A stretch of 64,000 nucleotides of DNA from Psychroserpens burtonensis DSM 12212 (GTDB lineage Bacteria; Bacteroidota; Bacteroidia; Flavobacteriales; Flavobacteriaceae), in the NCBI RefSeq assembly GCF_000425305.1, contig NZ_AUDE01000006.1:124001-188000 (forward strand), written 5' to 3'. The stretch's first letter is position 1. Each line of letters begins with the position of its first letter. The translations under genes and the position numbers were made by a program. Shown piece after piece: positions 5,762-26,376 of this stretch. The notes beneath the pieces were generated by a model. That model was given only the letters and a program-made list of their open reading frames with translations. It was not told the origin of the DNA and searched no databases.

Positions 5762-6211
5762 GTGAAAAAAGATTCTAAAAAATTAAAAAGAGGTATCAGA
5801 GCGATTGTAATCATTAGTCTTTTAAACATTACAAGTCTGTTATTAATTTCTATGGGAAGTAATACTTCTCTTGAGAAAGACCAAACAAACCTGCTATTCA
5901 ACAAGTGGCATCTAGAGACCTATAAAATAGAAAGTAAGTTGTATCCACCCAACAAAAAGGAAAAAGACGATTACATTCTCTTTAAAAAAGACATGACTTT
6001 CACTTCAAAATCAGAAGGTAAAGAAGACGAAGGAACCTTTATCCTAAATACAAACGGTGCTTACGTTGTAATGAGCGATAAAAATGGTGAAAAGATAAAA
6101 GCCTATATCATTTCAATATCAAATAACTCTTTAATACTGAAGTATGATATTAATGAAATTAAGGATGTTGAAGTTCATTATAATAGCGCGAATCAAATTC
6201 AAAAATTATGA
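5762..6211 (+). CDS. lipocalin-like domain protein, membrane-anchored
   Basis: About 149 residues from a GTG start at 5762. The open frame extends upstream to 5675, but that part overlaps a terminator hairpin and a -7 promoter element, so it cannot be translated from this transcript. The protein has a basic N-terminus, one hydrophobic segment (AIVIISLLNITSLLLISMG) and then a domain beginning LLFNKWHLETYKIESKLYPP with DYILFKKDMTFTSKSEGKED and GTFILN strands, the usual pattern of the small lipocalin-like domains of Bacteroidetes. Ligand unknown. The stop overlaps the next start by four bases (ATGA), so the two genes are translationally coupled. Confidence 0.7.
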   Translation: MKKDSKKLKRGIRAIVIISLLNITSLLLISMGSNTSLEKDQTNLLFNKWHLETYKIESKLYPPNKKEKDDYILFKKDMTFTSKSEGKEDEGTFILNTNGAYVVMSDKNGEKIKAYIISISNNSLILKYDINEIKDVEVHYNSANQIQKL

Positions 6212-7281
6212 AAAAATTTATTAGTATTTTATTTGTGTTTTTTAGTTATAGTTCATCTTTTTCGCAGACGACTATAGATCTAAAAATAGTTCCATTCGAG
6301 ATTGCGAATCAAAATTTTTATATAGACAACGTTATAGATAATCGTCAAGAGCTCCACCTTGGAGTTATAGAAAATAAGTCTAATAAGAAAGTGACATTAC
6401 GTTTTGAGAATGGCACTGCTACAACAATCAAAAACTTTATGGATGCCGCTCTGCCTAAATCAGGTGACAGAGTTCCGATAACTTTAAGGGTTAATCATTT
6501 GAAAATTGAAGAAGCACAAACAAGTATCGATAAGAGAACGGCTAGAGTTTATATAGAGCTCCATTTCTATGCAGAAAACGGAGAAGAACTTTATAAAGTC
6601 GTTCATTACGAAGATCAGGTTTTTCCAGTATCTAATTTATCTGAAATTTACGAAACCCACGAACAAAGAATCCGAGCAGCATTAGAATATTGCTTATGGA
6701 GTTTCATTAATGCACAAAAAGTAAATACAACTCATAATCTGATAAAAGATGACGTACTGGATAACGCTAATTCAACTAAAAAAGCATCCACGTTTGAAGC
6801 CTATGTCCCTTTAGGTAAGTGGGTTAATATGTTAACATTCCAAAGAGTGACAGATAAATATAATGAGGGTTGGAATGTAGAATATACTGGGTTTTCAGAC
6901 AATGACAAGGACCTTATTATTCCTTTTGTAATAGGCTTTGGTCAATCTAAATCTAAATCAGATATAGTACGAGAGCGTGGGTATAGTTCTGTTGATTCAT
7001 ATGTCCTCGGTTTTGGATTCAATGGCTTTATCAAAATAACACCTGGTGTTTATGTCGATCTTGGTTTAAATGTACCTCTCGGACTGGAAGTGTTAAGAGA
7101 TCTGGAAGACAATAAATCAACCAACTTTTTAATAGGTCTCAGTGCTAATCAGGGAGTGAAAATAATTCCTTGGAAAGATTTTGGAATTGTCATTGGAGCA
7201 GGAATTTTTCAAAGGTGGCAGACCTCTAAAGTAATCAATAGAAATTTTGGGTTTGCATTGGAATTAGGAATTAATTTTTAA
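6208..7281 (+). CDS. secreted hypothetical protein
   Basis: A 357-residue exported protein with signal peptide MKKFISILFVFFSYSSSFSQ. The first ~180 residues form an alpha/beta domain (DLKIVPFEIANQNFYIDNVI, a helix-rich AALEYCLWSFINAQ near residue 165). The C-terminal ~160 residues have alternating strands (SYVLGFGFNGFIKITPGVYV, FGFALELGINF) resembling an outer-membrane barrel. It overlaps the lipocalin-like gene by four bases, so the pair probably act together in the envelope. No enzymatic motif is visible and no known family is claimed. Confidence 0.75.
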   Translation: MKKFISILFVFFSYSSSFSQTTIDLKIVPFEIANQNFYIDNVIDNRQELHLGVIENKSNKKVTLRFENGTATTIKNFMDAALPKSGDRVPITLRVNHLKIEEAQTSIDKRTARVYIELHFYAENGEELYKVVHYEDQVFPVSNLSEIYETHEQRIRAALEYCLWSFINAQKVNTTHNLIKDDVLDNANSTKKASTFEAYVPLGKWVNMLTFQRVTDKYNEGWNVEYTGFSDNDKDLIIPFVIGFGQSKSKSDIVRERGYSSVDSYVLGFGFNGFIKITPGVYVDLGLNVPLGLEVLRDLEDNKSTNFLIGLSANQGVKIIPWKDFGIVIGAGIFQRWQTSKVINRNFGFALELGINF

Positions 7282-8256: not shown

Positions 8257-9333
8257 ATGAAACAAAGAATAATAGGAATAGATGTAGCGCGAGCATTGGC
8301 AGTTATCGGAATGATCGTCGTCAATTTCAAAGTAGTATTTGGAGAAAATGGCCAACTTTGGGTAAAATCTTTCGCTAGTATTTTTGACGGAAAAGCTGCA
8401 GCAACATTTGTAGTTTTAGCAGGTGTTGGACTTGCTTTAATGACCAATTCAGCAATTAACCATAGAGATAGAGCGAAAATAAAAGTTGCTCGAATTAGAA
8501 TAGCCAAAAGAGCTTTGTTTCTTTTTATTATTGGTATTTCATACATCACAATTTGGCCAGCAGATATTCTACATTTTTATGGGATTTATATGGCCATCAC
8601 ACTGGTGCTATTAACTTGTAAAGAAAAAACAATCCTAATTTCAGGTATTTGCATCATTCTAGTGTATCCAATTCTAATAACAGTTTTAAATTACGAGACA
8701 GGTTGGATTTTTGCCACTTTAGATTATCAAGATTTTTGGACGTTTAAAGGCTTTATTAGAAATCTATTTTTAAATGGTTTTCATCCAGTAATGCCTTGGA
8801 CTGCCTTTATGCTCTTTGGTTATTGGTTCGGAAAACAGGATTTACACAACGACAAATTCGTAAAAAAAACATTTTGGATGAGTACCATCATTTTTATTTC
8901 TATTCAAGTTGTGTCTTTTCTAACCATCTCGACTTTATCAGAAGGAAACAAAGAAGTTACTTTGGAACTGATTGAAATTTTTGGAACAAAACCAATGCCA
9001 CCACTACCCATTTATATGTTCAGCGGCACTGCCATTGCCTTTGCGATAATTTCAGCGTGTATACTAATTGCCAAGAAATTTAAAAACAGTTTTATCATTG
9101 ATGCCTTAAATAAAACAGGCCAATTAGCATTAACCTTATACGTGGCACACGTCATTGTTGGAATGGGAATTATTGAAGTAATAAACCCTTCTAAAATAGG
9201 GAATTATTCAATTGAATTTTCAGTGATTTATGCAATTGTATTTAGTTTACTGTGTATCTTATTTGCTGTTATTTGGAGAAGATATAACAAATCTGGACCC
9301 TTAGAATGGGTGATGCGAAAGCTAACGGATTAA
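8257..9333 (+). CDS. DUF1624/DUF418-type membrane protein
   Basis: A polytopic membrane protein of 358 residues. The opening RIIGIDVARALAVIGMIVVN is the signature of the heparan-alpha-glucosaminide N-acetyltransferase-like / DUF418 group, followed by about ten hydrophobic helices and the C-terminal LNKTGQLALTLYVAHVIVGM typical of DUF418. Related proteins are thought to be membrane acyltransferases, but the role is unproved. It starts 32 bases after the hydroxylase gene and may share its transcript. Confidence 0.85.
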   Translation: MKQRIIGIDVARALAVIGMIVVNFKVVFGENGQLWVKSFASIFDGKAAATFVVLAGVGLALMTNSAINHRDRAKIKVARIRIAKRALFLFIIGISYITIWPADILHFYGIYMAITLVLLTCKEKTILISGICIILVYPILITVLNYETGWIFATLDYQDFWTFKGFIRNLFLNGFHPVMPWTAFMLFGYWFGKQDLHNDKFVKKTFWMSTIIFISIQVVSFLTISTLSEGNKEVTLELIEIFGTKPMPPLPIYMFSGTAIAFAIISACILIAKKFKNSFIIDALNKTGQLALTLYVAHVIVGMGIIEVINPSKIGNYSIEFSVIYAIVFSLLCILFAVIWRRYNKSGPLEWVMRKLTD

Positions 9334-10918: not shown

Positions 10919-12127
10919 ATGTTAAAAAAAATAGTAAAATTATTTTGTGCTTTCTTACTTATTGTAATCGCATCTATTGCCTTACTTAGTAGAATTACAG
11001 GAATTGGAATAAAAGCACCCGATGGTCGCTATTTGGGGTACTCAAATGAATGGCTATTTCTCGACTATCAAAATATTCCTGTCCGTCAAGATGGCCCTTA
11101 TGTTCTAACCGAAAATGATACACGTTATGCCCTTTATATTAATGGAGACGGCAAAGCTCCTTCCGAGGTACTTCGACAAGACGTAACAAACGAAGTTGAA
11201 GTTATAGTAGACAATGCTGTAGGGACACAATTTACAGTTCCTTTGCGAAAAGCTTATCAACGTTCAGAATTGAGTATTCCGAGTCCTAAAAAGCTATTCG
11301 CTATTTCAGATCTGGAAGGTGAGTTTGACACTATGGTTCATCTATTACAGGTGAACGGTGTAATAGATCATGCTTTAAACTGGAGTTATGGCACCGGTCA
11401 TTTAGTCTTAATTGGTGACATGGTTGATCGCGGTAGGAATGTTGTTCCTTTGCTATGGTTAATTTACAAATTAGAGGGGGAAGCTAAGTTGGCTGGTGGA
11501 CATGTTCATTTTGTATTGGGCAATCATGAACGTTATTTATTAGATGGGAGAACCAAGTCCGTTGCCTCTAAATATTATGGTACTTTTCGCACTACAGATT
11601 TGTCTCAACGGGAATTATGGTCTGAAAAATCAGAATTAGGACACTGGTTAAGGAGTAAACCTGTGATGCTGAAAATTGGTAGTACTTTGTTTGTACATGC
11701 TGGCATCTCTCCTAAAGTATTAAGCATGGATCCTTCACTTCAATCCATTGACAAAGAAGCAGAAAATAATTTTGTGACTGATGATGTAGTAAGAAGGAAT
11801 ATTGACGGCAGTGTGATACATGATGCCAATGGCATACTATTTTATAGAGGTTTAGCGCTAGACAGGAGTGCAGATGATCTTGGTGAAAAAGCGAGCACAG
11901 CGCATGTGAATCAGGTGCTTGAAAAATTTAAAGTAGATAGAATAGCTATTGGACATACTTTGGCCACAAACATTAGCCATGACTATGATGAAAAAGTTAT
12001 ACGTGTTGATGTGCATCATTCAGGTGAGGTGAGTGAAGGCTTAGTCATAAAAGACAATACACTGTGGCGAGCCGATGACAAAGGGAAAATGTTTCCACTC
12101 AAACAAGTGGAAAACAGTACGGAATAA
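10919..12127 (+). CDS. calcineurin-like metallophosphoesterase
   Basis: A 402-residue phosphoesterase anchored by one N-terminal hydrophobic helix (residues ~8-24), so it probably faces the periplasm. The metallophosphoesterase motifs occur in order: ISDLEG (D131, with Glu where DxHG normally has His), GDMVDRG (166-172), GNHE (201-204), a HAGIS motif and GHT near residue 344. The order and the FVLGNHERYLL helix resemble Shewanella-type protein phosphatases (PPP-like). Residues 30-120 are an uncharacterised N-terminal region. Substrate could be a phosphoprotein or nucleotide. Confidence 0.85.
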   Translation: MLKKIVKLFCAFLLIVIASIALLSRITGIGIKAPDGRYLGYSNEWLFLDYQNIPVRQDGPYVLTENDTRYALYINGDGKAPSEVLRQDVTNEVEVIVDNAVGTQFTVPLRKAYQRSELSIPSPKKLFAISDLEGEFDTMVHLLQVNGVIDHALNWSYGTGHLVLIGDMVDRGRNVVPLLWLIYKLEGEAKLAGGHVHFVLGNHERYLLDGRTKSVASKYYGTFRTTDLSQRELWSEKSELGHWLRSKPVMLKIGSTLFVHAGISPKVLSMDPSLQSIDKEAENNFVTDDVVRRNIDGSVIHDANGILFYRGLALDRSADDLGEKASTAHVNQVLEKFKVDRIAIGHTLATNISHDYDEKVIRVDVHHSGEVSEGLVIKDNTLWRADDKGKMFPLKQVENSTE

Positions 12128-12387: not shown

Positions 12388-14871
12388 ATGAAAATAGTAA
12401 AACGAGTTCTTAAATTTATCGCCATACTTATTGGGATCTTACTAATCTCTTCAGTCATTGTTATACTCGTAGATCAACAAAGTACCAGTTATTTAAAAAC
12501 TAAAAACAATAAATTTGCTAATAACACCTATCTAATTACCAATGCAAATATTATCCCAATGAATCAAGACACTATTTTAGTTAACAAAATGGTATTCATA
12601 AAAGAGGGTTTAATTCAAAATATATCGGATAATATTGAAATGAAGGGTGTTGAAATTATTGATGCAAAAAACAAATACTTAACCCCTGGTCTTATAGATA
12701 TGCATGTTCATGTATGGGATAGATATGAACTTGGCTTATATCTATCCAATGGTATTACATCTGTTCGTAATTTATGGGGTATGCCCATGCATTTAAGACT
12801 TAAAGAAGATATAGAAAATGATAAAATTATCGCTCCCATGTTTTTTACAAGTGATCCTAAACTGACGGGTCCAGAATTTATTGGAGATGATAATTTACAC
12901 CTAACAAGCCCCCTTGAAGCCAAAGAAAAAGTGATTTCATATAAAAAAAGAGGCTACGATTTTATTAAAACCTATTATGCAGAACGCGCAAAAGGTGGCG
13001 TTGGTTTAATTATTTCTGGTGGTATTGCACCTAATGTACAAGGTTGGACAGGCCCTTTTTCCGCAAGAATGAGTACAAAAAAACACGCAAGAAACCATAA
13101 GGTAATTACAGATGCAGTGCATAAAGAAGGTGGTAAAATATGCATGCAAATTTTACACGCAGGACGATACGGATATCATCCGCTTGCGGTTGCACCTTCG
13201 GCCATAAAATCACCAATTAGCCCCTTTAAACCATTTAAACTAAAACAATCAGGTATCAAACGTACCATTCGTGATTTTGTAAATTCTGCTAAACTAGCAA
13301 AATTAGCGGGCTATGATGGTATAGAAATTATGGGTTCTGAAGGGTATTTGATTAATCAATTTATTTCAGAAAGAACAAATACGCGCACTGATAATTATGG
13401 CGGAAGCTATGAGAATCGAATGCGTTTACCTATTGCATTAGTAAAGCAAACTCGTGAAGCAGTTGGAACCGAGTTTATCATCATCTATCGTTTATCCATG
13501 TTAGATTTAGTAGAAAAAGGAAGTACTTGGCAAGAAGTAGTTGCCTTAGGTAAAGAAATTGAAAAATCTGGTGCCACTATCATAAACACAGGAATTGGTT
13601 GGCACGAAGCACGAATACCAACCATCGCAACGTCAGTACCAAGAGCTGCATTTACTTGGGTAACTAAAAAAATGAAAGAAGAACTTTCGATTCCGTTAGT
13701 AACTTCAAATAGAATAAATATGCCAGAAACAGCTAAAAAAGTATTGGCAGAAGGTCATGCAGACATGATTTCAATGGCACGTCCGTTTTTAGCAGATTCA
13801 GAATGGGTAAATAAAGCAGAAGCAAATAGATCGGACGAAATAAACACATGTATTGGCTGTAATCAAGCGTGTTTAGATCACGTCTTTGAACAGAAAGTAG
13901 CAAGTTGCTTAGTAAACCCAAGAGCATGTCATGAAACGGAACTAAATTATCTTCCAACAAAAATAAAGAAAAGAATTGCTGTTATAGGCGCAGGACCTGC
14001 AGGATTAGCTGCGGCAACCATCGCAGCACAACGAGGACATGACGTTACCCTTTTTGATTCCGAAAAGGAAACAGGAGGACAATTTAATATGGCGAAGCAA
14101 ATTCCGGGGAAAGAAGAATTTTATGAAACGATACGTTATTTTAATAAACAAATAGAATTACATCAAGTCACTGTAAAATTAAATACGCGAGTCACTAGTG
14201 AAGATTTAAAAAGTGGTAATTTTGATGAAGTTATATTAGCGACAGGAATCAAACCAAGAACCTTAAAAATTGAAGGTATTGATCACCCTAAAGTATTAGA
14301 CTATATTGATGTTTTAAAATTCAAAAAACCGGTTGGTAGACGTGTTGCAATTATTGGAGCAGGCGGAATAGGTTTCGATGTTTCAGAATATTTAGCACAT
14401 GAAGGTGAAAGTACCTCATTAAACATTGACGCTTGGTTAAAAGAATGGGGAATTGATAAAACAATGAGCGCTAGAAGTGGAATTGAATGTGTAACCGCAG
14501 AAGTTAATCCATCACCAAGAGAGATCTTCATGTTTAAACGCAGCGAAGGTAAATTTGGTGGTAACTTAGGTAAAACTACGGGTTGGATTCATCGTTCTAC
14601 ATTGAAAAAGAAAAAAGTCCAGTTTATCAACAGCGTTCAGTATACAAAAATTGATGATATTGGCTTGCATTATATTCAAAATAAAGAGCAAAAAGTGTTA
14701 GAGGTAGATAACATTATTATTTGCGCAGGTCAGTTGCCACTTAAAGAATTACTAGAGCCATTAGAAGCAGAGGGCATAAAAGTTCATGTCGTTGGTGGTG
14801 CAGATGTTGCTGCTGAATTAGATGCAAAACTAGCTATTAATCAAGCCTGTAGATTAGCTGCTACCATTTAA
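12388..14871 (+). CDS. chimera: truncated amidohydrolase fused to 2,4-dienoyl-CoA reductase
   Basis: An 827-residue frame made of two unrelated parts. Residues 1-~194 are the start of a membrane-anchored metal-dependent amidohydrolase: one hydrophobic helix (8-28), the LITNANIIPM beta strand, and the metal motif PGLIDMHVHVW (H106, H108); the remaining metal ligands are lost. From ~Y196 (YYAERAKGGVGLIISGGIAP) the sequence is FadH, NADPH-dependent 2,4-dienoyl-CoA reductase, used in oxidation of unsaturated fatty acids. It retains the likely catalytic Y320 and H406, the 4Fe-4S cysteines C488, C491, C495 and C507, and both dinucleotide folds (GAGPAG at 534 and IIGAGGIGFD later). FadH normally starts about 43 residues earlier, so the first TIM-barrel strand and part of the FMN site are missing. 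Probably inactive as either enzyme. Confidence 0.85.
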   Translation: MKIVKRVLKFIAILIGILLISSVIVILVDQQSTSYLKTKNNKFANNTYLITNANIIPMNQDTILVNKMVFIKEGLIQNISDNIEMKGVEIIDAKNKYLTPGLIDMHVHVWDRYELGLYLSNGITSVRNLWGMPMHLRLKEDIENDKIIAPMFFTSDPKLTGPEFIGDDNLHLTSPLEAKEKVISYKKRGYDFIKTYYAERAKGGVGLIISGGIAPNVQGWTGPFSARMSTKKHARNHKVITDAVHKEGGKICMQILHAGRYGYHPLAVAPSAIKSPISPFKPFKLKQSGIKRTIRDFVNSAKLAKLAGYDGIEIMGSEGYLINQFISERTNTRTDNYGGSYENRMRLPIALVKQTREAVGTEFIIIYRLSMLDLVEKGSTWQEVVALGKEIEKSGATIINTGIGWHEARIPTIATSVPRAAFTWVTKKMKEELSIPLVTSNRINMPETAKKVLAEGHADMISMARPFLADSEWVNKAEANRSDEINTCIGCNQACLDHVFEQKVASCLVNPRACHETELNYLPTKIKKRIAVIGAGPAGLAAATIAAQRGHDVTLFDSEKETGGQFNMAKQIPGKEEFYETIRYFNKQIELHQVTVKLNTRVTSEDLKSGNFDEVILATGIKPRTLKIEGIDHPKVLDYIDVLKFKKPVGRRVAIIGAGGIGFDVSEYLAHEGESTSLNIDAWLKEWGIDKTMSARSGIECVTAEVNPSPREIFMFKRSEGKFGGNLGKTTGWIHRSTLKKKKVQFINSVQYTKIDDIGLHYIQNKEQKVLEVDNIIICAGQLPLKELLEPLEAEGIKVHVVGGADVAAELDAKLAINQACRLAATI

Positions 14872-14897: not shown

Positions 14898-15485
14898 ATG
14901 ATTATTATAATAGCGCCCGTAGATGACCTCCCAAAAGAAATTGACCTACTCAAACAGCTATTTGAAGCAGGTTTAGAGCATTTTCATTTGAGAAAACCTC
15001 ATAAAAACTATAAAGCACATTGTGAGTATTTAAATCAAATAGATGAACAGTATCACAATAAAATAGTCGTTCATTATCATCATGAATTAATAAACGAATT
15101 CAAATTAAAAGGGATTCATTTTCAAGAACAAAATAGAATAGATCATATAGATAATCCTGGTCAATATTTTAAAGGTCTTGATATGTTCGGCAAAACAATA
15201 AGCTCTTCATTTCATAAACCTAAAGATTTGGAGGGTTGTTATTTTGAGTTTGATTATCATTTGCTAAGTCCTGTCTTTTCATCTATTTCAAAAAAAGGCG
15301 AAGAAGGTCGTGGTTTTGATGTATCTCATATTGATAAAACTATTGTAGGCATGGGTGGAGTTACAGCAGATAATTTAAAAGCCTTTGATACCTTGGGCTA
15401 TAAAGGCGTTGGTGTTTTAGGAGGTGTTTGGCATAGTGATACACCTGTAGAGGTTTTTAAATTAATGATTGCTCATTTTAAATAA
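14898..15485 (+). CDS. TenI-like thiamine phosphate synthase family protein
   Basis: A 195-residue TIM-barrel protein of the ThiE/TenI family. Opening IIIIAPVDDLPKEIDLLKQL with FHLRKPHK, the GIHFQEQNR strand and the C-terminal phosphate-binding loop MGGVTADN, then GVGVLGG. Compared with ThiE it lacks several pyrophosphate-binding residues of the synthase, so it is more likely TenI-like (thiazole tautomerase) or a divergent ThiE. It starts 26 bases after the chimera. A decayed thiE copy follows at 15632, which suggests that a thiamine gene pair once stood here; no other thiamine gene is near. Confidence 0.75.
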   Translation: MIIIIAPVDDLPKEIDLLKQLFEAGLEHFHLRKPHKNYKAHCEYLNQIDEQYHNKIVVHYHHELINEFKLKGIHFQEQNRIDHIDNPGQYFKGLDMFGKTISSSFHKPKDLEGCYFEFDYHLLSPVFSSISKKGEEGRGFDVSHIDKTIVGMGGVTADNLKAFDTLGYKGVGVLGGVWHSDTPVEVFKLMIAHFK

Positions 15486-15631
15486 AGAGATCATAGATAA
15501 ACAACAAACAGTCGCGCTGTACATGTTGCTACATTATATTAATAATACCCTTGAATACGTTCCAGAGGTTGACTTGATCTGACAATTCGCATCCTAAAGA
15601 TAACAACCACTATGTAGAGCAGTAATAAAAC

Positions 15632-15978
15632 ATGATTACATCTAAGCTGCATGACGTAACTTAAGGAAATTCTCCAAAAGAGCACTTGTAAAATATTCAA
15701 AAAACATGTTCATCTGGCCCTGAATTGGTACAATTACGGATGAAGAATATTTCAGAAGAAAAAGACATTAAAAATAGCTGCACAAGGTCGAGAAATCACA
15801 TCTCATTTTCAAACCCGATTAATCACTAATGGGCACTATAAATAAGCGTAAGAAGTTAAAGAAGATGGTGTCTATTTAGATAAAACTGACGTCTGCCCTA
15901 CTGTAGTTAGATACTAGTTATAAACTTGGCAAATGATTGGTGGTACAGCAACTACCATTCAGAATTATGAAAAATAGC
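15632..15978 (+). pseudogene. decayed thiE copy
   Basis: This stretch matches the first ~345 bases of the intact thiE at 25732 at roughly three positions in four. Shared blocks include AAGGAAATTCTCCAAAAG, CATGTTCATCTGG, GAAATCACATCTCATTTTCA and GACGTCTGCCCTACT. Stops and frame shifts are frequent; TAA is already codon 11. Similarity ends near 15978, so the 3-prime half (with the phosphate-binding GVGGIT loop) is gone. It lies directly after the TenI-like gene, the expected place for an ancestral thiE. Confidence 0.8.
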
Positions 15979-16148
15979 CAAACCATCCACACGATGTTTT
16001 CAATTGTGAACAGTGTGTTCAATATCCCATAAAGACAGGTCTTTTAAACACTATTGAGAACCTAGAGTTATTAAACGATTTGCGTCGCAACCTTGGATAG
16101 CTTTCTAAAGTTTTGATATCTCAATGAACACAAGAGTTTGCCCAAACA
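15979..16148. other. unassigned sequence after decayed thiE
   Basis: No similarity to the thiE 3-prime half and no usable frame. A fragment reading ...NTIENLELLNDLRRNLG (around 16040-16100) resembles coding sequence but has no start. Nothing else seen. Confidence 0.35.
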
Positions 16149-16183
16149 AAAACAGCATCTAAAACTACTTTAGATGCTGTTTT
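16149..16183. terminator. bidirectional hairpin terminator
   Basis: Perfect 15-bp stem AAAACAGCATCTAAA / TTTAGATGCTGTTTT with a 5-base loop. It has T-runs on both strands. It would end the minus-strand detoxification operon (stop at 16206) and any plus-strand transcript from the TenI side. Confidence 0.85.
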
Positions 16184-16205
16184 AAATAGTATCCGAAAGA
16201 CTATT

Positions 16206-17261
16206 TTATTTAAGCGATTTCATATCAATTACAAACCTGTATTTAACATCATTACTAGTAACACGCTCGTAAGCTGTATTTATATCTTGCATATCTATAA
16301 GCTCAATATCACTAGTAATATTATGTTCTCCACAAAAATCTAACATCTCCTGTGTTTCTTTAATACCACCAATTAGAGAACCAGCAATGCGCTTGCGTCC
16401 CATAATGACACTTCCTCCGTGAAATGGCTTCAAAGGCTCTACTGCGCCAACTAAAACCATTGTTGCATCAATCTTAAGCAATCCTAAATAGGGATCCATT
16501 TCATGACCTACAGGAATAGTGTTTAAGATAAAATCAAAACTACCTTGGTGTTTTTTCATATCGTCCTGATCCTTTGATACTAAAACTTCATGAGCACCTA
16601 ATCGTTTTGCATCTTTTCCTTTTTCTGGTGATGTTGTTATCATGACCACATGTGCCCCTAAAGCATTCGCAAATTTAACACCCATATGGCCTAAACCTCC
16701 TAAACCTATCACACCTACTTTATCTCCTTTTTTCACTTTCCAGTGACTTAGTGGAGACCAAGTCGTAACTCCTGCACATAATAAAGGTGCTGTTGCTGCT
16801 TCGTCTAAGTTTTCTGGGATGCTTAGTACAAATTTTTCATCTACAACTACTGCTGTTGAATAACCTCCATACGTTTGTGTGCCTTCCATATGTTTATTTG
16901 GACTGTTATACGTAAATGTGGCTCGTTTTTCACAAAATTGCTCCAAGTCTTGTTCGCAAGAAGAACAGGTTTGGCAAGAGTCTACCATACAACCTACGCC
17001 TACTAAATCTCCTACTTTATAAGTATTTACACCATTACCAACTTCAACAACACGACCAATAATTTCGTGTCCAGGTACTACTGGATACGTTGATCCTTTC
17101 CAGTCATTTCTTACGGTATGTATATCACTGTGACACACACCACAATAGGTAATATCTATTTTTACATCGTCCGCTCCTACGGCTCTTCTTTGTATATCTA
17201 AAGGTTTTAAAGCCTCTGTTGATGCTGTTGCACCATATGCTTTTATTGTTGTACTTGCCAT
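16206..17261 (-). CDS. zinc-dependent NAD(P) alcohol dehydrogenase
   Basis: A 351-residue medium-chain alcohol dehydrogenase of the cinnamyl alcohol dehydrogenase / YahK type, reducing aldehydes with NADPH in the cytoplasm. Visible motifs: catalytic zinc site CGVCHSDIHT and PGHE, structural zinc cysteines in CQTCSSCEQDLEQFC, coenzyme loop GLGGLGHMGVK. Length is normal for the family. It is the last gene of a minus-strand trio (ene-reductase, OsmC, ADH), starting only two bases after OsmC, so the genes are co-transcribed and probably form an electrophile and aldehyde detoxification operon. Confidence 0.92.
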   Translation of the reverse strand: MASTTIKAYGATASTEALKPLDIQRRAVGADDVKIDITYCGVCHSDIHTVRNDWKGSTYPVVPGHEIIGRVVEVGNGVNTYKVGDLVGVGCMVDSCQTCSSCEQDLEQFCEKRATFTYNSPNKHMEGTQTYGGYSTAVVVDEKFVLSIPENLDEAATAPLLCAGVTTWSPLSHWKVKKGDKVGVIGLGGLGHMGVKFANALGAHVVMITTSPEKGKDAKRLGAHEVLVSKDQDDMKKHQGSFDFILNTIPVGHEMDPYLGLLKIDATMVLVGAVEPLKPFHGGSVIMGRKRIAGSLIGGIKETQEMLDFCGEHNITSDIELIDMQDINTAYERVTSNDVKYRFVIDMKSLK

Positions 17262-17263
17262 TA

Positions 17264-17689
17264 TTATGCGTTTTTTAAAGTTACTATTAATTCAATTTCT
17301 GTTTGTAATAATTTAGATATAGGACATACTTCTTTAGCTTTCTGTGCTATTTGCTGAAATTGTTCTGCATCAATATTAGGTACATCTCCTTCTAAATTTA
17401 AGCTAATTTTGACAATAGCTCCATCTTCAAAAGTAACCGTAGCATCTACATCTAAAGTTGTTGCTGTGAAATCAGCTTCGTTTAATAAGAAGCTTAATTG
17501 CATGGCAAAACAACCGGCATGAGCTGCACCAATTAATTCCTCAGGATTGGTTCCTTTCTCTTCATCTTCAAACCTTGTGTGAAATGAATATTGTGTCTTG
17601 TTAAGAACCTTACTTCCAGTAGTTAAGTTTCCTTGTCCCTCTTTTCCACTGCCTTTCCATTCAGCGTTTGCTTTTCTTGTAAATTTCAT
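17264..17689 (-). CDS. OsmC family peroxiredoxin
   Basis: A 141-residue OsmC/Ohr family thiol peroxidase that reduces organic hydroperoxides. Both redox cysteines are present: C60 in GAAHAGCFAMQL and C122 in KEVCPIS. The N-terminal KFTRKANAEWKGSGKEGQG matches the OsmC rather than the Ohr subgroup. It lies 27 bases after the ene-reductase and 2 bases before the alcohol dehydrogenase. Confidence 0.92.
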   Translation of the reverse strand: MKFTRKANAEWKGSGKEGQGNLTTGSKVLNKTQYSFHTRFEDEEKGTNPEELIGAAHAGCFAMQLSFLLNEADFTATTLDVDATVTFEDGAIVKISLNLEGDVPNIDAEQFQQIAQKAKEVCPISKLLQTEIELIVTLKNA

Positions 17690-17716
17690 AAACTATTTAT
17701 TTTAATATTAAATTAT

Positions 17717-18811
17717 TTATTTAGAGGCTTTTGGATAATCTGTATACCCTTTTGCTCCTGTTGTGTAAAACGTATCTCCATCCCATTCTGATAAATCTAA
17801 GTTATTTTCCAAACGTTCTACTAAATCTGGATTAGAGATATACAGCTTACCGTAAGCTACTAAATCTGCATGACCTTCTTCAATTATTTTATTTCCTTTG
17901 TGTTGATTAAAAGCAGTGTTGATCATTAATGTTCCATTGTATAAAGGTCGGAAATGCTTGGCAACTTCTGTCACAGCATAAGGTATTTCTGAAACATCTG
18001 TAAAGGGTTCAGAAAGATGTACGTATGCTAAATTATAATCATTTAGTTTTTTAATGATGTATTCAAACGTTGGGATGGTATCTTTATCCATAGTCATACC
18101 AAATAAACCGTGTAATGAAGGATTAAAACGTGCGCCAATTTTTTCCTGCGGAATAACTTCTTTAATGGCGTCTAGAACTTCAAAAAAGAAACGGGCTTTG
18201 TTTTCAATACTTCCGCCATAATTATCTGTTCTTTTATTAGACGTTCCATTAAAGAACTGATGAAATAAATAGCCATTAGAGGAGTGTATTTCTACGCCAT
18301 CAAAACCTGCTTTTACTGAATTTGCAGCTGCATTTCTAAAATCTCTAACCGTAGTTTTGATATCTTCAATGGTCATTTCCCTAGGCGTAACAGTATCTTT
18401 AAACCCTTCTGGAGTATATGATTTATCGTTTGGATTGATAGCCGAAGCTGAAAGCGGTAATGCTCCATTATGAAAATCAGGATGAGACATCCGTCCTACA
18501 TGCCATAATTGAATAAAGATTTTTCCTCCTTTATCATGTACGCGCTTAGTTACGTTTTTCCAACCTTCTAATTGCTCATCTGAATAAATACCCGGAGTAT
18601 TAATGTAACCTACAGCATCAGTAGATACTTGCGAACCTTCTGTAATAATTAAACCCGCTGATGCACGTTGCTCGTAATACAAGCCTTGTAAACCATAAGT
18701 TGGCACATGACCTTCATTATTTGCTCTACTGCGCGTCATAGGCGCCATAACGACTCTGTTATTTAGGTTAATATTTTTGTTATATGTTGTTAATAAATAT
18801 TGCTTACTCAT
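17717..18811 (-). CDS. alkene reductase (old yellow enzyme family)
   Basis: A 364-residue FMN-dependent ene-reductase of the NemA/OYE family, which reduces activated C=C bonds or nitro groups with NADPH. Features: NNRVVMAPMTRSRA at the N-terminus (FMN binding), QLWHVGRMSHP, the substrate-binding H/N and catalytic Y in VEIHSSNGYLFHQF, RTDNYGGS, and the C-terminal phosphate-binding region ending DYPKA. First gene of the minus-strand operon with OsmC and ADH; a good -7 promoter lies 27 bases upstream of its ATG. It shares its fold with the FadH part of the nearby chimera but is clearly a different subfamily. Confidence 0.93.
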   Translation of the reverse strand: MSKQYLLTTYNKNINLNNRVVMAPMTRSRANNEGHVPTYGLQGLYYEQRASAGLIITEGSQVSTDAVGYINTPGIYSDEQLEGWKNVTKRVHDKGGKIFIQLWHVGRMSHPDFHNGALPLSASAINPNDKSYTPEGFKDTVTPREMTIEDIKTTVRDFRNAAANSVKAGFDGVEIHSSNGYLFHQFFNGTSNKRTDNYGGSIENKARFFFEVLDAIKEVIPQEKIGARFNPSLHGLFGMTMDKDTIPTFEYIIKKLNDYNLAYVHLSEPFTDVSEIPYAVTEVAKHFRPLYNGTLMINTAFNQHKGNKIIEEGHADLVAYGKLYISNPDLVERLENNLDLSEWDGDTFYTTGAKGYTDYPKASK

Positions 18812-18837
18812 GTTCTATTTTATAAAATATTAATAAA

Positions 18838-18845
18838 CAAATTTA
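18838..18845 (-). promoter_or_regulatory. promoter of the ene-reductase operon
   Basis: Read on the minus strand this is TAAATTTG, a match to TAnnTTTG, 27 bases before the ATG at 18811. A short inverted repeat GACCTA (18871) / TAGGTC (18906) further upstream could be a regulator site, but no regulator gene is adjacent. Confidence 0.55.
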
Positions 18846-19499
18846 CAGAACTGCCGCACCAATTATCGTTGACCTATATCAATTAATATATATTTAACGT
18901 ATGGCTAGGTCTATTTCTGTTTTCTAGACAGTTCTCTTTGTTTAATCGTGAAAGTTTAATGCCGTTACACTATATTTTTATGGTTGATTATTCATTTCTT
19001 ATTAAAAGATATTTACGAATCTCATGGCCTCGCTATCGCAGAAGAGATACTCGTGAGTTTAGAATCTAGTTTAGTAGTTATCCTAACTAACTTTTCAATT
19101 TTATTAACATCTTAAAAGGACTTTTGTTAAAAAAATAAAGAACGAAATCATAAGCTTTAGGTTTTTACCTAAATCAATTTCAAAATAGAATAAGATATGT
19201 TTTAAATAGTGCCTTTAATCATAAAAGTGATTGGCTATGAATCTAAATAAGATTTCGAATACCTTTATTTCTATACTTCTATAAAAACACAATAGACCTG
19301 TTTTATTTTATAGAAATCCAAATATTATCGCTGAAGCACTAATTAATGCGATAAAATACATGTATTTCATATAATTTAACATTTTATTAACACTTTTAAA
19401 GACAAAGTGTTCTCACCTTGCTCACATAACCTACCTAAAATTGAAACAACTTTCAATGAATAGGGAAACACGAATATCAATTATATTAAACACAATCTC
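18846..19499. other. gene-free stretch between divergent units
   Basis: About 650 bases between the minus-strand detoxification operon and the plus-strand ice-binding genes. Near 19008-19110 one plus-strand frame reads plausibly (KDIYESHGLAIAEEILVSLE) but has no start and may be a relic. The rest is AT-rich with no assignable feature. Confidence 0.4.
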
Positions 19500-22223
19500 A
19501 TGATGTCCCAAACAAAATTCTTATCACGTATTTCTTTAATTTTTCTATTCTTCTTAGGCGTTAATAGCGCTTTTTCACAAATAGATCTTGGATCTATTGA
19601 AAATTTCAGTATTTATACATCTATAGGCGCGGTATCAAACACAGCGACTACAAATATTACGGGCGACATTGGTTCAGATGATGGTGCCATAACTGGTTTT
19701 GGAGGACTTTCAATTGTAAATGGTAATATTCATAACACGAATAGTATTACTGCCCAAGCAGACTTGGATTTAAATGCTGCTGTTGTTCAAATAAATAATA
19801 CAACAACAACAGCTGTTCATATTCCCGTTTTTGGTAATGGAGAAACGCTATATCCGGGGGTTTATTCTCAAGCAGCTGCGGCATCTTTAGATGGGACTCT
19901 AACCTTAGATGCACAAGGAAATCCTAATGCACAATTTATCTTTAAAATAGGAGGCGCATTTTCAACCGCAGCAGGAGCGACAGTCGTTTTAATTAATTGC
20001 GCTTCACCGTCAAATATATTTTGGCTTTCTGGCGGCGCAATCTCTATGGCAGCTTCAACAACCATAAGTGGTAATTTAATTAGTAACCCTGGAGCAGTTG
20101 GTATAGGTTCAGGAGGTAATATAGATGGAAGAATGCTCTCTACCACTGGCGCCATTTCTATTTATGGCTCCATAATGAACAATGGCATTCCAAGAGTAGA
20201 CACAATTATGCAGCCAACATGCGCAGCAGCAGCGGGAAGTTTTCAAATTACGGACTACGACGCCAACAATACATACGTCTTCACTCCAAGCGTGTTAAGT
20301 ATTTCAGGAACAGGAATGGTCACTGCAGCTCCAAACACCTATACATTTACAGTCACAACAACTGCAGGTGGTTGTAGTTTTACTGCCACTTCAATAAACG
20401 TGGTCATTAACACAGGACCACTCACAAATTATTGGACAGGGGAAATTAGTTCAGATTGGAATAATGCAGGAAACTGGACCTGTGGCATCCCTACTAATTT
20501 AAATAATTATATAAATATTATTCCTTTAGTAACAACAATATATCCTGTAATTGGCACTCAGCCTGACAATAGTGGTATTGTTGCAAATCTTGAAATTCCA
20601 AGTGGTGCTTCATTAACCATAAATAACAACAACTTACGAATTACAACTATTTTAACCCTAAACGGTAAAATTCAGTTAAAAGGAGAATCCCAATTATTAC
20701 AAGATACTGGAAGTGTTTTTGATGCGGCGAGTACTGGCACTATAAAAATTGACCAACAAGGAACAGAAAATAGCTATAGGTACAATTATTGGAGTTCACC
20801 GGTCAACTCAAGAGAAACAGCATTTACCATTGGAGAAGTTTTAAGAGATGGTACAGACCCAAATAATAGTATGAATATTGATTTTGGAACTAATTATACT
20901 TATGCTGACGGGACAACAAGTTCACCAATTAAACTAAGCGCCTATTGGATGTATAAATTAGCAGATTCTGGCTTAGGCTATAGCGCATGGGCGAGTGTAG
21001 GAAATACCTCAGAAATAAAAATAGGACAAGGATACACTATGAAAGGTTCTAATACCAATGCCGTAGAACAAAATTACACCTTTGTTGGCAAACCAAATAA
21101 TGGAATTATTGAATTACCGGTAAGTGCTAATAATGATTATTTGCTTGGAAATCCATATCCATCGGCTATAGATGCTGATAAATTTATTGAAGACAATGGG
21201 GCATCTTCAGGTACCGCTTCAATGACTGGCACTCTTTATTTTTGGGAACATTACGGTGGTGACGCCCATACTTTGGCTGATTACCAGGCAGGTTACGGAA
21301 CCTATTCTAGAGGTGGTGGTGTTTCAGCTTCTTCTAACCCACCTGTTGCAGGCGTTAGCTCTTTAGGACTATCTGTAAAGGGAGCTCCAAAACAATATAT
21401 TCCTGTAGGTCAAGCATTTTTTGTGGTAGGTGATGCAGATGGCGGACAAATTCAATTTAACAATAGTCAGCGTGTTTTCGCAAGGGAATCTTCTGGGAAT
21501 TCTGTTTTCATGAGAACCAATACATCAGAAGCCACAACTAACAATGACCTTAGACCAAAATTCAGAATTGGTTTTGATGCACCTAACATAAGTCACCGGC
21601 AAGTTTTACTTACTCTTGATGGCAACACATCTGATGCTGTAGACTGGGGTTATGATGCAGAAATGTACGAAGTTTTTGATGATGACATGTATTGGATTCT
21701 TAACGATAAAAAATATGTAATTCAAGCAACTAATAACTTTGGTATTGATAAAGAAATCCCATTAGGAATTAGAACATTAGAAGGCGGACTCATAAGTATT
21801 AAAGTTGATGAGTTGGAAAATGCTGAAGACTACACTAACCTCTATATTAAAGACAATTTAACAGGTGAAACACATGATATTACAAACCAAGAATTTTCAA
21901 TTAATCTAGAGGCTGGTGAGTATCAAGATCGTTTTTTACTTGTATTTCAACCAAGTCTAAATATTATAGAAGAAGAGACTTCATTAGACAGAATTCAAAT
22001 TTATATGAATAATTCAATTTCTAAATTACAATTAAATGGAATTGTAGATACAGAAATACTGAATGTTAATTTGTTCAACTATTTAGGACAACAAGTAAAA
22101 ACTTGGAGTATAAATCCAGATAAGCACTCCGTTTCGTTACCAATTGAATTAGCTTCAGGAGTTTATATTGTGATCGTTGAGACTACAACAGGAAAAGAAA
22201 ATAAGAAAATAATCATAAACTAA
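19500..22223 (+). CDS. ice-binding-like protein with T9SS sorting domain, copy 1
   Basis: A 907-residue secreted protein. The signal peptide MMSQTKFLSRISLIFLFFLG... ends near SAFSQ. Residues ~30-245 are a DUF3494 ice-binding-like domain (IDLGSIENFSIYTSIGAVSN, TNITGDIGSDDGAITGFGG, QFIFKIGGAFSTAAGATVVL, SGNLISNPGAVGIGSGGNID, GRMLSTTGAIS), which folds as a discontinuous beta solenoid. Then come an NYWTGEISSDWNNAGNWTCG module, a long beta-rich region, and a C-terminal ~75-residue type A T9SS sorting domain (LNVNLFNYLGQQVKTWS ... GVYIVIVETTTGKENKKIII). DUF3494 proteins bind ice or inhibit its recrystallisation. A close paralogue follows in tandem. Ice activity here is inferred from the family only. 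Confidence 0.9.
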   Translation: MMSQTKFLSRISLIFLFFLGVNSAFSQIDLGSIENFSIYTSIGAVSNTATTNITGDIGSDDGAITGFGGLSIVNGNIHNTNSITAQADLDLNAAVVQINNTTTTAVHIPVFGNGETLYPGVYSQAAAASLDGTLTLDAQGNPNAQFIFKIGGAFSTAAGATVVLINCASPSNIFWLSGGAISMAASTTISGNLISNPGAVGIGSGGNIDGRMLSTTGAISIYGSIMNNGIPRVDTIMQPTCAAAAGSFQITDYDANNTYVFTPSVLSISGTGMVTAAPNTYTFTVTTTAGGCSFTATSINVVINTGPLTNYWTGEISSDWNNAGNWTCGIPTNLNNYINIIPLVTTIYPVIGTQPDNSGIVANLEIPSGASLTINNNNLRITTILTLNGKIQLKGESQLLQDTGSVFDAASTGTIKIDQQGTENSYRYNYWSSPVNSRETAFTIGEVLRDGTDPNNSMNIDFGTNYTYADGTTSSPIKLSAYWMYKLADSGLGYSAWASVGNTSEIKIGQGYTMKGSNTNAVEQNYTFVGKPNNGIIELPVSANNDYLLGNPYPSAIDADKFIEDNGASSGTASMTGTLYFWEHYGGDAHTLADYQAGYGTYSRGGGVSASSNPPVAGVSSLGLSVKGAPKQYIPVGQAFFVVGDADGGQIQFNNSQRVFARESSGNSVFMRTNTSEATTNNDLRPKFRIGFDAPNISHRQVLLTLDGNTSDAVDWGYDAEMYEVFDDDMYWILNDKKYVIQATNNFGIDKEIPLGIRTLEGGLISIKVDELENAEDYTNLYIKDNLTGETHDITNQEFSINLEAGEYQDRFLLVFQPSLNIIEEETSLDRIQIYMNNSISKLQLNGIVDTEILNVNLFNYLGQQVKTWSINPDKHSVSLPIELASGVYIVIVETTTGKENKKIIIN

Positions 22224-22261
22224 ATAATAACGCATCATAAATAACTAATACACATTTTTAT

Positions 22262-22297
22262 AAAAAAGAGGCTTCTAAATTGAAGCCTCTTTTTTTA
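22262..22297 (+). terminator. rho-independent terminator
   Basis: Perfect stem AAAAAAGAGGCTTC / GAAGCCTCTTTTTT with a 6-base loop, after ice-binding copy 1. The same terminator with one mismatch follows copy 2. Confidence 0.88.
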
Positions 22298-22532
22298 ATT
22301 CGACATTCTATGTACCGAGAGCTTTCAAATAATCCTGCTATTCATTAAAGGTTTTATTAAATTATTCTAATCGCACATACAGTGTGCTTTCCTAATTCGC
22401 CAGCGCATAATAAAAACACACTCGCTCTCACTCCTTTAATATCGACATTAGATGAGAGATTGATGAATTGTCTGCTTAAATAATAATTTCAATAAACACA
22501 AGTATATATACGAATCCTAACACCCAAAAACC

Positions 22533-25253: not shown

Positions 25254-25297
25254 ATGATATTTGGCTAATTCTATAAGTATCAAATACACATTTTTAT

Positions 25298-25332
25298 AAA
25301 AAAGAGGCCTCAAAATTGAAGCCTCTTTTTTA
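25298..25332 (+). terminator. rho-independent terminator
   Basis: AAAAAAGAGGC...GCCTCTTTTTT hairpin, a copy of the one at 22262, here with an imperfect top (CCTC opposite GAAG). It ends ice-binding copy 2 and was duplicated with it. Confidence 0.85.
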
Positions 25333-25731
25333 AATTCGGTCTGCTATATAACCAAAAGTTTAAACTAATACAATTATGAAGCAGAGGTTTTATCACTAAA
25401 GCTAACAATTCCAATACAGTTGACAGCAAGCCAATACGCATAATAGCGCTTCCAATGATATATAAACCCTTATAAATTATTGGACAAAATTGTCATACTA
25501 ATTAATAGAACGATGACTAATCCTACTAAAAATATAATCCAGCGTAAAGGTTTTATGCTAAAGTATTAAAGGTATAATTACCTGACTTATAAAACACACC
25601 ATTTTGGTATTATAATTAATGAGTATGCAAATGCTTAGTGCTTTTTAATTAAAGTATTTATATCTTGCCGTTCATATATTTATTTAAAGTTTCGAAAGAC
25701 AAAGTCCCCTTTTAGATTAGAATAAAAAGAC
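25333..25731. other. gene-free stretch before thiE
   Basis: About 400 bases without an intact gene. On the minus strand, 25470-25556 keeps an open frame reading KPLRWIIFLVGLVIVLLIS before TAA, a membrane-helix-like segment without a start codon, perhaps the end of a lost small membrane protein. No riboswitch for thiamine pyrophosphate could be recognised upstream of thiE. Confidence 0.4.
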
Positions 25732-26376
25732 ATGATTATACCTAAGCTACATTATATATCCCAAGGAAATTCTCCAAAAGAACACCTAGAAAACATCCAG
25801 AAAGCATGTTCATCTGGTGCAGAGTTGGTGCAATTACGGTTAAAAATTAGTTCAGAAAAAAAAATATTAAAGTTCGCCAAAGAAGCTAGAGAAATCACAT
25901 CTCATTTTCAAACCCGGTTAATTATTAACGATCATTATAAAATAGCTAAAGAAGTCAAAGCAGATGGTGTGCATTTAGGACCATCAGACGTCTGCCCTAC
26001 TATTGCTAGAAAGTATTTATATACTTGGCAAATGATTGGTGGAACAGCAAATACATTAGAGAATTGTGAAAAGTTATTAGATAAAGAAATTGACTATATT
26101 AGTTTAGGGCCTTTTCGAGAAACAACTACGAACGACAATTTAAGTCCGGTTTTAGGTTTAAAAGGTTATACTGCAATTACAGATGTCTTAAAAACTCCAA
26201 TACCAATTATTGGTGTTGGCGGTATTACCACAGCAGATGTTGAAGCCATATTAGATACTGGCATTTCAGGGATTGCTGTATCTGGAGAAATTACACGTGA
26301 TTTTAATATTGTCAGAACATTTAACCAATTACTTAACGCATCTTTAATAGAAGAAAAACGTCATACATTTGAATAG
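25732..26376 (+). CDS. thiE: thiamine phosphate synthase
   Basis: A 214-residue ThiE, joining hydroxymethylpyrimidine pyrophosphate and thiazole phosphate to give thiamine phosphate. Motifs: LVQLRLK near the N-terminus, LIINDHYKIAKEVKADGVHL with GPSD, IGGTANTLENCEKL, DYISLGPFRETTTN, and the phosphate loop IPIIGVGGIT then GISGIAVSGEI. Length and motifs are normal, so it should be functional. It is the intact copy of the relic at 15632-15978. It stands alone; the rest of the thiamine pathway is not in the window. Confidence 0.93.
   Translation: MIIPKLHYISQGNSPKEHLENIQKACSSGAELVQLRLKISSEKKILKFAKEAREITSHFQTRLIINDHYKIAKEVKADGVHLGPSDVCPTIARKYLYTWQMIGGTANTLENCEKLLDKEIDYISLGPFRETTTNDNLSPVLGLKGYTAITDVLKTPIPIIGVGGITTADVEAILDTGISGIAVSGEITRDFNIVRTFNQLLNASLIEEKRHTFE

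What the first reader, a model, noticed from the sequence alone, without database searches (positions are those of the whole stretch)
12388..14871. In-frame chimera of an amidohydrolase N-terminus and a 2,4-dienoyl-CoA reductase
The first ~194 residues are a membrane-anchored amidohydrolase with the HxH metal motif but no later ligands; from about base 12970 the frame becomes FadH missing its first ~43 residues while keeping catalytic Tyr/His and the 4Fe-4S cysteines. The two parts meet at similar short sequence (amidohydrolase GYDFIK-x-Y, FadH FYAERA), which points to a deletion between two tandem genes. Either it is a recent gene-destroying event, or an evolved membrane-tethered reductase, or an assembly join.
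Basis: partly seen in the sequence, partly recalled or inferred. Interest (0 to 1): 0.75.

Follow-up and report, generated by a model that had tools for sequence, protein, structure and literature searches.

The report
Two broken genes joined in frame
In one bacterium the front of a membrane-anchored hydrolase gene has been joined in frame to the back of a fatty-acid-degrading enzyme gene at a ten-base stretch that the two genes probably shared, most likely by a chance deletion that ruined both enzymes, so it is an ordinary if neat mutation.

Summary
Window 12388-14871 is one clean 827-codon frame: residues 1-194 are the front of a membrane-anchored amidohydrolase, residues 195-827 a 2,4-dienoyl-CoA reductase (FadH) lacking its first 42 residues. 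With the nearest intact relatives as stand-ins for the parents, both genes share ACCTATTATG at the joint, the only in-frame shared run of 10 bases; 8 of 2,000,000 random breakpoint pairs do as well. The missing halves were found nowhere else in the genome. No other genome in five overlapping scans showed the fusion. This points to a real, lineage-specific short-homology joint, not a conserved fusion protein and probably not an assembly error. Both enzymes are predicted dead: the amidohydrolase lost three likely metal ligands, the reductase the start of its flavin barrel with the invariant flavin-side His. The frame is not decaying, so the event is young or the product is kept. The assumed tandem parents were not seen: nine genomes carry both genes, on different contigs or at least 299 kb apart. 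Gene order is mixed and also allows insertion of fadH into an amidohydrolase locus. Ordinary mutation; interest low.

The parts
12388..12969 (+). N-terminal 194 codons of a membrane-anchored amidohydrolase: hydrophobic anchor at residues about 7-30, H106/H108 (HxH) and K194
   Evidence: 88% identical to the intact 476-aa L040 protein over 193 aligned residues; these three positions are conserved in 87 of 87 relatives
12970..12979 (+). joint: 10 bases (ACCTATTATG) shared by the intact amidohydrolase of L040 and the intact fadH of L182
12970..14871 (+). fadH lacking its first 42 codons: rest of FMN barrel, 4Fe-4S cysteine region (488-514), FAD/NADPH domains, stop
   Evidence: at most 89% identical to intact orthologs
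10919..12127 (+). calcineurin-like phosphoesterase upstream of the chimera (context)
8257..9333 (+). DUF418/acyltransferase-like membrane protein; an ortholog (76%) lies directly upstream of the intact amidohydrolase in L050 (1 locus), which suggests amidohydrolase context
14898..15485 (+). TenI/thiamine-phosphate-synthase-like gene 26 bp after the chimera; within 1.2 kb of the thiE ortholog in 10 of 10 fetched relatives
17264..18811 (-). OsmC-like and OYE-like genes; an OYE ortholog (80-81%) lies 4-5 kb downstream of the intact amidohydrolase in L059, L085 and L088 (OsmC too in the last two), in the other relative orientation
25732..26376 (+). thiE; its ortholog lies directly behind fadH in L182 and L183, which suggests fadH context

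Best explanation
A short-homology (10 bp) recombination in this lineage joined codon 194 of a membrane amidohydrolase gene to codon 43 of fadH and removed about 280 amidohydrolase codons, 42 fadH codons and whatever lay between the genes. Most likely it was one deletion between two copies of ACCTATTATG on the same strand (replication slippage or RecA-independent annealing), because the reciprocal halves are not found in the genome. The product is most likely not a working enzyme: the amidohydrolase lacks half its barrel and three likely metal ligands; the reductase lacks the start of its barrel with the flavin-site His, and its remainder may be threaded behind the anchor, away from NADPH and cofactor loading. 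Shown: architecture, joint, missing halves not found, fusion not found in the genomes searched, conserved residues lost. Inferred: deletion as mechanism, tandem parents, loss of function, topology, recency.
For: Frame and halves. Joint: L040 reads AAA|ACC TAT TAT G|GT, L182 fadH GCC|ACC TAT TAT G|CA, the window AAA|ACC TAT TAT G|CA; one of two 10-base shared runs and the only one in frame; 8 of 2,000,000 random breakpoint pairs share 10 or more. Own genome: the amidohydrolase query matches this locus only over residues 1-198, other matches are at 36% identity or less; the FadH query finds no other long FadH. No fusion seen in 96, 22, 396, 296 and 336 genomes other than G000, overlapping sets. 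Full-length relatives: FadH frames of 675-739 codons in 34 of 34 distinct orthologs (kept only if at least 50% identical over 90% of the query), amidohydrolase frames of 424-530 codons in 87 of 87 (at least 45% over 85%; own locus L200 removed). Flanks: DUF418 beside the amidohydrolase in L050; thiE beside fadH in L182 and L183; tenI-thiE within 1.2 kb in 10 of 10. Lost residues: L182 H28 aligns with 1ps9 position 26, and PMC6502838 (sections 6 and 7) puts H26 of the E. coli enzyme close to the hydride-donating N5 of FMN; equivalents of L040 H221, H241, D358, conserved in 87, 87 and 86 of 87 relatives, are lost. Anchor: net charge +4 in residues 1-10, best 19-residue hydropathy 3.26.
Against: No genome searched has the two genes side by side, so the parent arrangement is assumed. 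Gene order is mixed: in L059, L085 and L088 an OYE ortholog lies 4-5 kb downstream of the intact amidohydrolase, as OYE/OsmC lie downstream of the chimera (other orientation), so amidohydrolase context may lie on both sides of fadH-tenI, which would suit an insertion. The parental bases are known only from relatives: of 15 fadH loci only L182 shares all ten bases; the others share 4 to 9. The fadH part is not decaying: no stop in 633 codons, 3 departures at 252 columns invariant in 34 orthologs, pairwise dN/dS 0.04-0.08, which fits recency but also continued selection. Charge +3 after the anchor against +4 before leaves topology unsettled.
Confidence: 0.72

Rival explanations
1. Insertion of a DNA block that carried a 5'-truncated fadH plus tenI into a resident amidohydrolase gene (homology-assisted illegitimate recombination), with loss of the amidohydrolase 3' half.
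For: Both genes are patchy in the genus: of 22 congeners 1 has this FadH and none the amidohydrolase at E<=1e-50, and none has a close tenI ortholog. OYE orthologs downstream of the amidohydrolase in L059, L085 and L088 suggest that genes on both sides of fadH-tenI in the window could be amidohydrolase neighbours.
Against: No amidohydrolase 3' remnant was found, so a further loss is needed; OYE/OsmC have the opposite relative orientation; fadH-thiE adjacency in L182/L183 looks like an ordinary fadH neighbourhood.
Confidence: 0.15
2. Assembly or library artefact that joined two distant loci at a short overlap.
For: The genome is a draft of 68 contigs; the two genes were not adjacent on one contig in any of the nine genomes found with both; reads could not be examined.
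Against: The missing halves were not found elsewhere in an assembly rated 99.92% complete, though a misjoin of two real loci should leave them; 10 bases is shorter than assembler word lengths (general knowledge); contig C3 runs at least 51 kb beyond the joint (window is C3:124001-188000).
Confidence: 0.1
3. Functional new fusion (not exclusive of the deletion origin): the anchor and amidohydrolase half tether a still useful flavoprotein, for example the FAD/4Fe-4S/NADPH part working as a diaphorase.
For: Joint exactly in frame; 827 codons clean; the fadH part is about as conserved as intact orthologs (3 departures at 252 invariant columns; intact orthologs 0-3 apart from the two most divergent, 16 and 46).
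Against: Seen in one genome only; a flavin-site segment invariant in 14 of 14 aligned orthologs is gone; half an amidohydrolase barrel has no known reason to fold; the anchor may export the reductase. A recent event explains the clean frame equally well.
Confidence: 0.08

Closest known systems
E. coli FadH, NADPH-dependent 2,4-dienoyl-CoA reductase (1ps9)
   Same: Residues 189-825 align with 35-669, including the Fe-S cysteine region and the NADPH/FAD domains
   Different: First 42 residues (start of the barrel and the MGSMHT flavin-site motif with H26) are replaced by a foreign half protein with a membrane anchor
Membrane-anchored amidohydrolases of Bacteroidota (L040 and 86 other loci); best solved-structure match bottromycin amidohydrolase 6i5s
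   Same: Anchor, HxH and K194 as in intact relatives
   Different: About 280 C-terminal residues with the equivalents of H221, H241 and D358 are missing
Chimeric genes made by short-homology deletions (general kind; recalled, no specific paper read)
   Same: Short direct repeat at the joint, intervening DNA not found
   Different: In frame, so one long clean frame results; parent arrangement not observed

Membership tests
2,4-dienoyl-CoA reductase (FadH) | Complete N-terminal FMN barrel incl. its first part and the MGSMHT flavin-site segment | tested here: not met
   profile starts at 36 of 342; 42 residues missing
2,4-dienoyl-CoA reductase (FadH) | 4Fe-4S cysteines and active-site Tyr/His region | tested here: met
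   CIGCNQACL at 488 and ASCLVNPR at 505, GSEGYL and IGWHEAR aligned with 1ps9; the roles of these residues are recalled
2,4-dienoyl-CoA reductase (FadH) | FAD/NADPH domain | tested here: met
   Pyr_redox_2 at residues 529-805, above cut-off
2,4-dienoyl-CoA reductase (FadH) | Catalytic activity | not testable with these tools
   Needs a bench assay
Amidohydrolase superfamily (Amidohydro_1/3) | HxH on strand 1 | tested here: met
   H106, H108; conserved in 87 of 87 relatives
Amidohydrolase superfamily (Amidohydro_1/3) | Later metal ligands (His, His, Asp) and complete barrel | tested here: not met
   L040 H221, H241, D358 lie in the part that is missing; that they are ligands is recalled
Conserved fusion protein | Same architecture in other genomes | tested here: not met
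   0 of 96, 22, 396, 296 and 336 other genomes, overlapping sets; only the best 2-3 candidate places per genome were scored
Short-homology deletion | Direct repeat of both parents at the joint | tested here: met
   10 bp with L040 and L182 as stand-ins; 4-9 bp with the other 14 fadH loci
Short-homology deletion | Parents in tandem on one strand in a close relative | tested here: not met
   Nine genomes found with both genes, none adjacent on one contig; no genome known to be of the same species was examined

The most novel reading that the evidence does not exclude
The chimera is kept by selection as a membrane-tethered flavo-iron-sulfur protein in which amidohydrolase strands stand in for the lost first strand of the reductase barrel: a naturally recombined chimeric barrel with a new activity, seen near its birth.
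Probability: 0.06. Interest if true: 0.65.

Novelty: new member of a known kind. Interest (0 to 1): 0.2.

Why it matters
As it stands it is a clear natural example of how a short shared sequence can turn two genes into one clean frame that automatic annotation may call a bifunctional protein. It is a warning for domain-fusion inference: functional linkage between amidohydrolases and FadH should not be read from it. Only if the protein proved active would it bear on how new enzyme folds arise.

Tried and rejected
Conserved fusion: rejected, no second case; only the best 2-3 candidate places per genome were scored and the match list was cut, so the count of genomes with both genes is a lower bound. 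Split pieces elsewhere in the genome (translocation or reciprocal exchange): not found. Plasmid-borne fusion: tblastn against plasmids matched 399 records; the 20 listed start at query residue 137 or later, so they cover the FadH side and at most a piece before it; the other 379 were not inspected. Structure prediction: the chimera (mean pLDDT 54.5) and the intact FadH control (59.3) are both low-confidence, so neither was used and no fold search was run; a first alignment (A1) placed rows wrongly and was replaced by A3, which gives the N-terminal half no relatives. Relaxed selection: three-way counts gave p<0.05 in 5 of 18 FadH triplets (none of the 3 with the nearest ortholog L140) and 2 of 11 amidohydrolase triplets (none of the 4 with L040), uncorrected and not independent; pairwise dN/dS of the window is 0.044-0.081 for FadH (intact pairs 0.031-0.047) and 0.136-0.201 for the amidohydrolase part (intact pairs 0.109-0.131), so slightly higher: a hint at most. 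One search counted the own-genome locus L200 among the amidohydrolases; one search repeats the count without it. Dropped from the FadH set: partial or broken copies (G475 at a contig end; G570, fetched after the count). Literature: six searches (two returned nothing), listings seen only; one paper opened, PMC6502838 (passages, sections 6 and 7). No paper on this fusion appeared in those searches, which is not proof that none exists. On re-checking, the OYE context of L059, L085 and L088 was added and the confidence in the plain deletion lowered from 0.80 to 0.72, the insertion rival raised from 0.12 to 0.15.

Full report
What is there. Window 12388-14871 (+) is one open frame of 827 codons. 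Its last 633 codons are FadH: Oxidored_FMN from profile position 36 and Pyr_redox_2, and a match of residues 189-825 to 35-669 of E. coli FadH, 1ps9. Its first 194 codons are the N-terminal part of an amidohydrolase with a membrane anchor. The best relative is L040, an uncultured Flavobacteriaceae, 88% over 193 aligned residues, whose intact gene is 476 aa. The window genome is put in one family with genomes whose contig lengths equal those of Hyunsoonleella aestuarii (388,162) and Mangrovimonas spongiae (364,338); that this family is Flavobacteriaceae is recalled.

The joint. With intact genes of relatives standing in for the parents, the window follows the amidohydrolase (L040) up to AAA ACC TAT TAT G and fadH (L182) from ACC TAT TAT GCA onward. 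Ten bases, ACCTATTATG, are common to both. Between the two whole genes there are 18 maximal shared runs of 9 bases or more, two of 10, and this is the only one of 10 in frame; 8 of 2,000,000 random breakpoint pairs share 10 or more. The length depends on the stand-in: of the 15 fadH loci only L182 shares all ten; the other 14 share 4 to 9. L182 holds the ortholog nearest by synonymous sites among the six compared with the window (L140, the same gene; pS 0.475 against 0.64-0.66 for the five others).

Is it real and is it shared? In the own genome the intact amidohydrolase query finds this locus only over its residues 1-198, and otherwise matches at 23-36% identity. The intact FadH query finds this locus from residue 34 on, and otherwise matches at 28-35% identity. 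So neither missing half was found, as a misjoin of two loci or a reciprocal exchange would leave it. No genome other than G000 showed the fusion: 96 relatives, 22 congeners, 396 of the family, 296 around G345, 336 around G432; the sets overlap, and only the best 2-3 candidate places per genome were scored. In one search, 15 other genomes have this FadH and 28 the amidohydrolase half-match, in frames of gene length. Genomes found with both: G054, G456, G458, G461, G569, G579, G580, G582, G583, a lower bound. In three of the nine both are on one contig, 299, 358 and 607 kb apart; in six they are on different contigs.

The flanks give a mixed picture. Upstream, the DUF418 gene at 8257-9333 has its ortholog (76%) directly upstream of the intact amidohydrolase in L050, and a gene at 6208-7281 has one (70%) about 5 kb upstream in L045 (where 11 amidohydrolase loci were compared with the ORFs of the whole window). 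Downstream, the tenI-like gene (14898-15485) and thiE (25732-26376) lie within 1.2 kb of each other in 10 of 10 relatives fetched out of 93 with a match (nine high-scoring ones and G345). thiE stands 28 bp behind fadH in L182 and close behind it in L183, 2 of 15 FadH loci compared; in G345 the tenI-thiE pair lies about 11 kb before fadH. On this evidence the chimera is a seam between an amidohydrolase side and a fadH side. Against a simple seam: in L059, L085 and L088 an OYE ortholog (80-81%), with OsmC in two of them, lies 4-5 kb downstream of the intact amidohydrolase, as OYE/OsmC lie downstream of the chimera, though in the other orientation. So amidohydrolase neighbours may lie on both sides, which an insertion of fadH-tenI would explain. 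I cannot decide between a deletion and an insertion with loss from this; I favour the deletion because it needs one step.

What was lost. The missing reductase segment holds residues invariant in 14 of 14 aligned orthologs (N20 R21 .. M24 G25 S26 M27 H28 T29 G30 L31 E32 E33). H28 of L182 aligns with position 26 of 1ps9, and PMC6502838 (section 7 and its figure legend) states that H26 of the E. coli enzyme lies close to the hydride-donating N5 of FMN. Section 6 puts the barrel of the related NCR at residues 19-359, while the window part begins at chain position 55 of that protein (numbering may differ slightly). The amidohydrolase keeps H106, H108 and K194 and lacks the equivalents of L040 H221, H241 and D358, conserved in 87, 87 and 86 of 87 relatives; that these are metal ligands is recalled. 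The N terminus has a 19-residue stretch of mean hydropathy 3.26, net charge +4 in residues 1-10 and +3 in residues 30-44; 87 of 87 relatives have a hydrophobic stretch there. An N-in/C-out anchor is my reading and is not settled by charge.

Age or selection? The FadH part departs at 3 of 252 columns that are invariant in 34 orthologs; intact orthologs show 0-3 apart from the two most divergent (16 and 46). With those two left out it is 4 of 329, against 0-5 in the rest. An unconstrained period could account for at most about 0.013 substitutions per site (95% bound), against dS of 0.75 to L140. So either the joint is recent or the frame has been under selection; the data cannot separate these. 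Three-way counts and pairwise dN/dS show at most a weak, inconsistent excess of nonsynonymous change in the window copy (numbers in Tried and rejected). FadH seems dispensable in this group: 1 of 22 congeners has it at E<=1e-50, and in G570, in the genus of G432, it matches in two pieces in different frames, one with a TAG.

Verdict. An in-frame, so far lineage-specific chimera made at a short shared sequence, most likely a deletion that destroyed both genes. The main gaps: the adjacent parent arrangement has not been seen, gene order also allows an insertion, and reads were not available. AlphaFold models of chimera and control were too poor to use.

Noticed in passing
window 15486-25731: The tenI-like and thiE genes, within 1.2 kb of each other in 10 of 10 fetched relatives, are split in the window by about 10 kb that holds minus-strand ADH, OsmC-like and OYE-like genes and two tandem ice-binding-domain proteins.
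   Followed up: partly
window 19500-22223 and 22533-25253: Two tandem, evidently paralogous 907/906-aa proteins with an Ice_binding domain and a secretion C-tail-like end.
   Followed up: no
L261 / G570:C66:192861-194788: fadH in another genus of the family matches in two pieces in different frames, one with a TAG: an independently broken copy.
   Followed up: no
L046:3770-5992: A second, more distant amidohydrolase N-terminal match (51%, query residues 1-84) just upstream of the main copy, possibly tandem paralogs.
   Followed up: no
window 14898-15485: The tenI-like gene matches in 93 of 396 other family genomes at E<=1e-25 but in 22 congeners only two distant matches at 22% identity appear: a patchy distribution.
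   Followed up: partly
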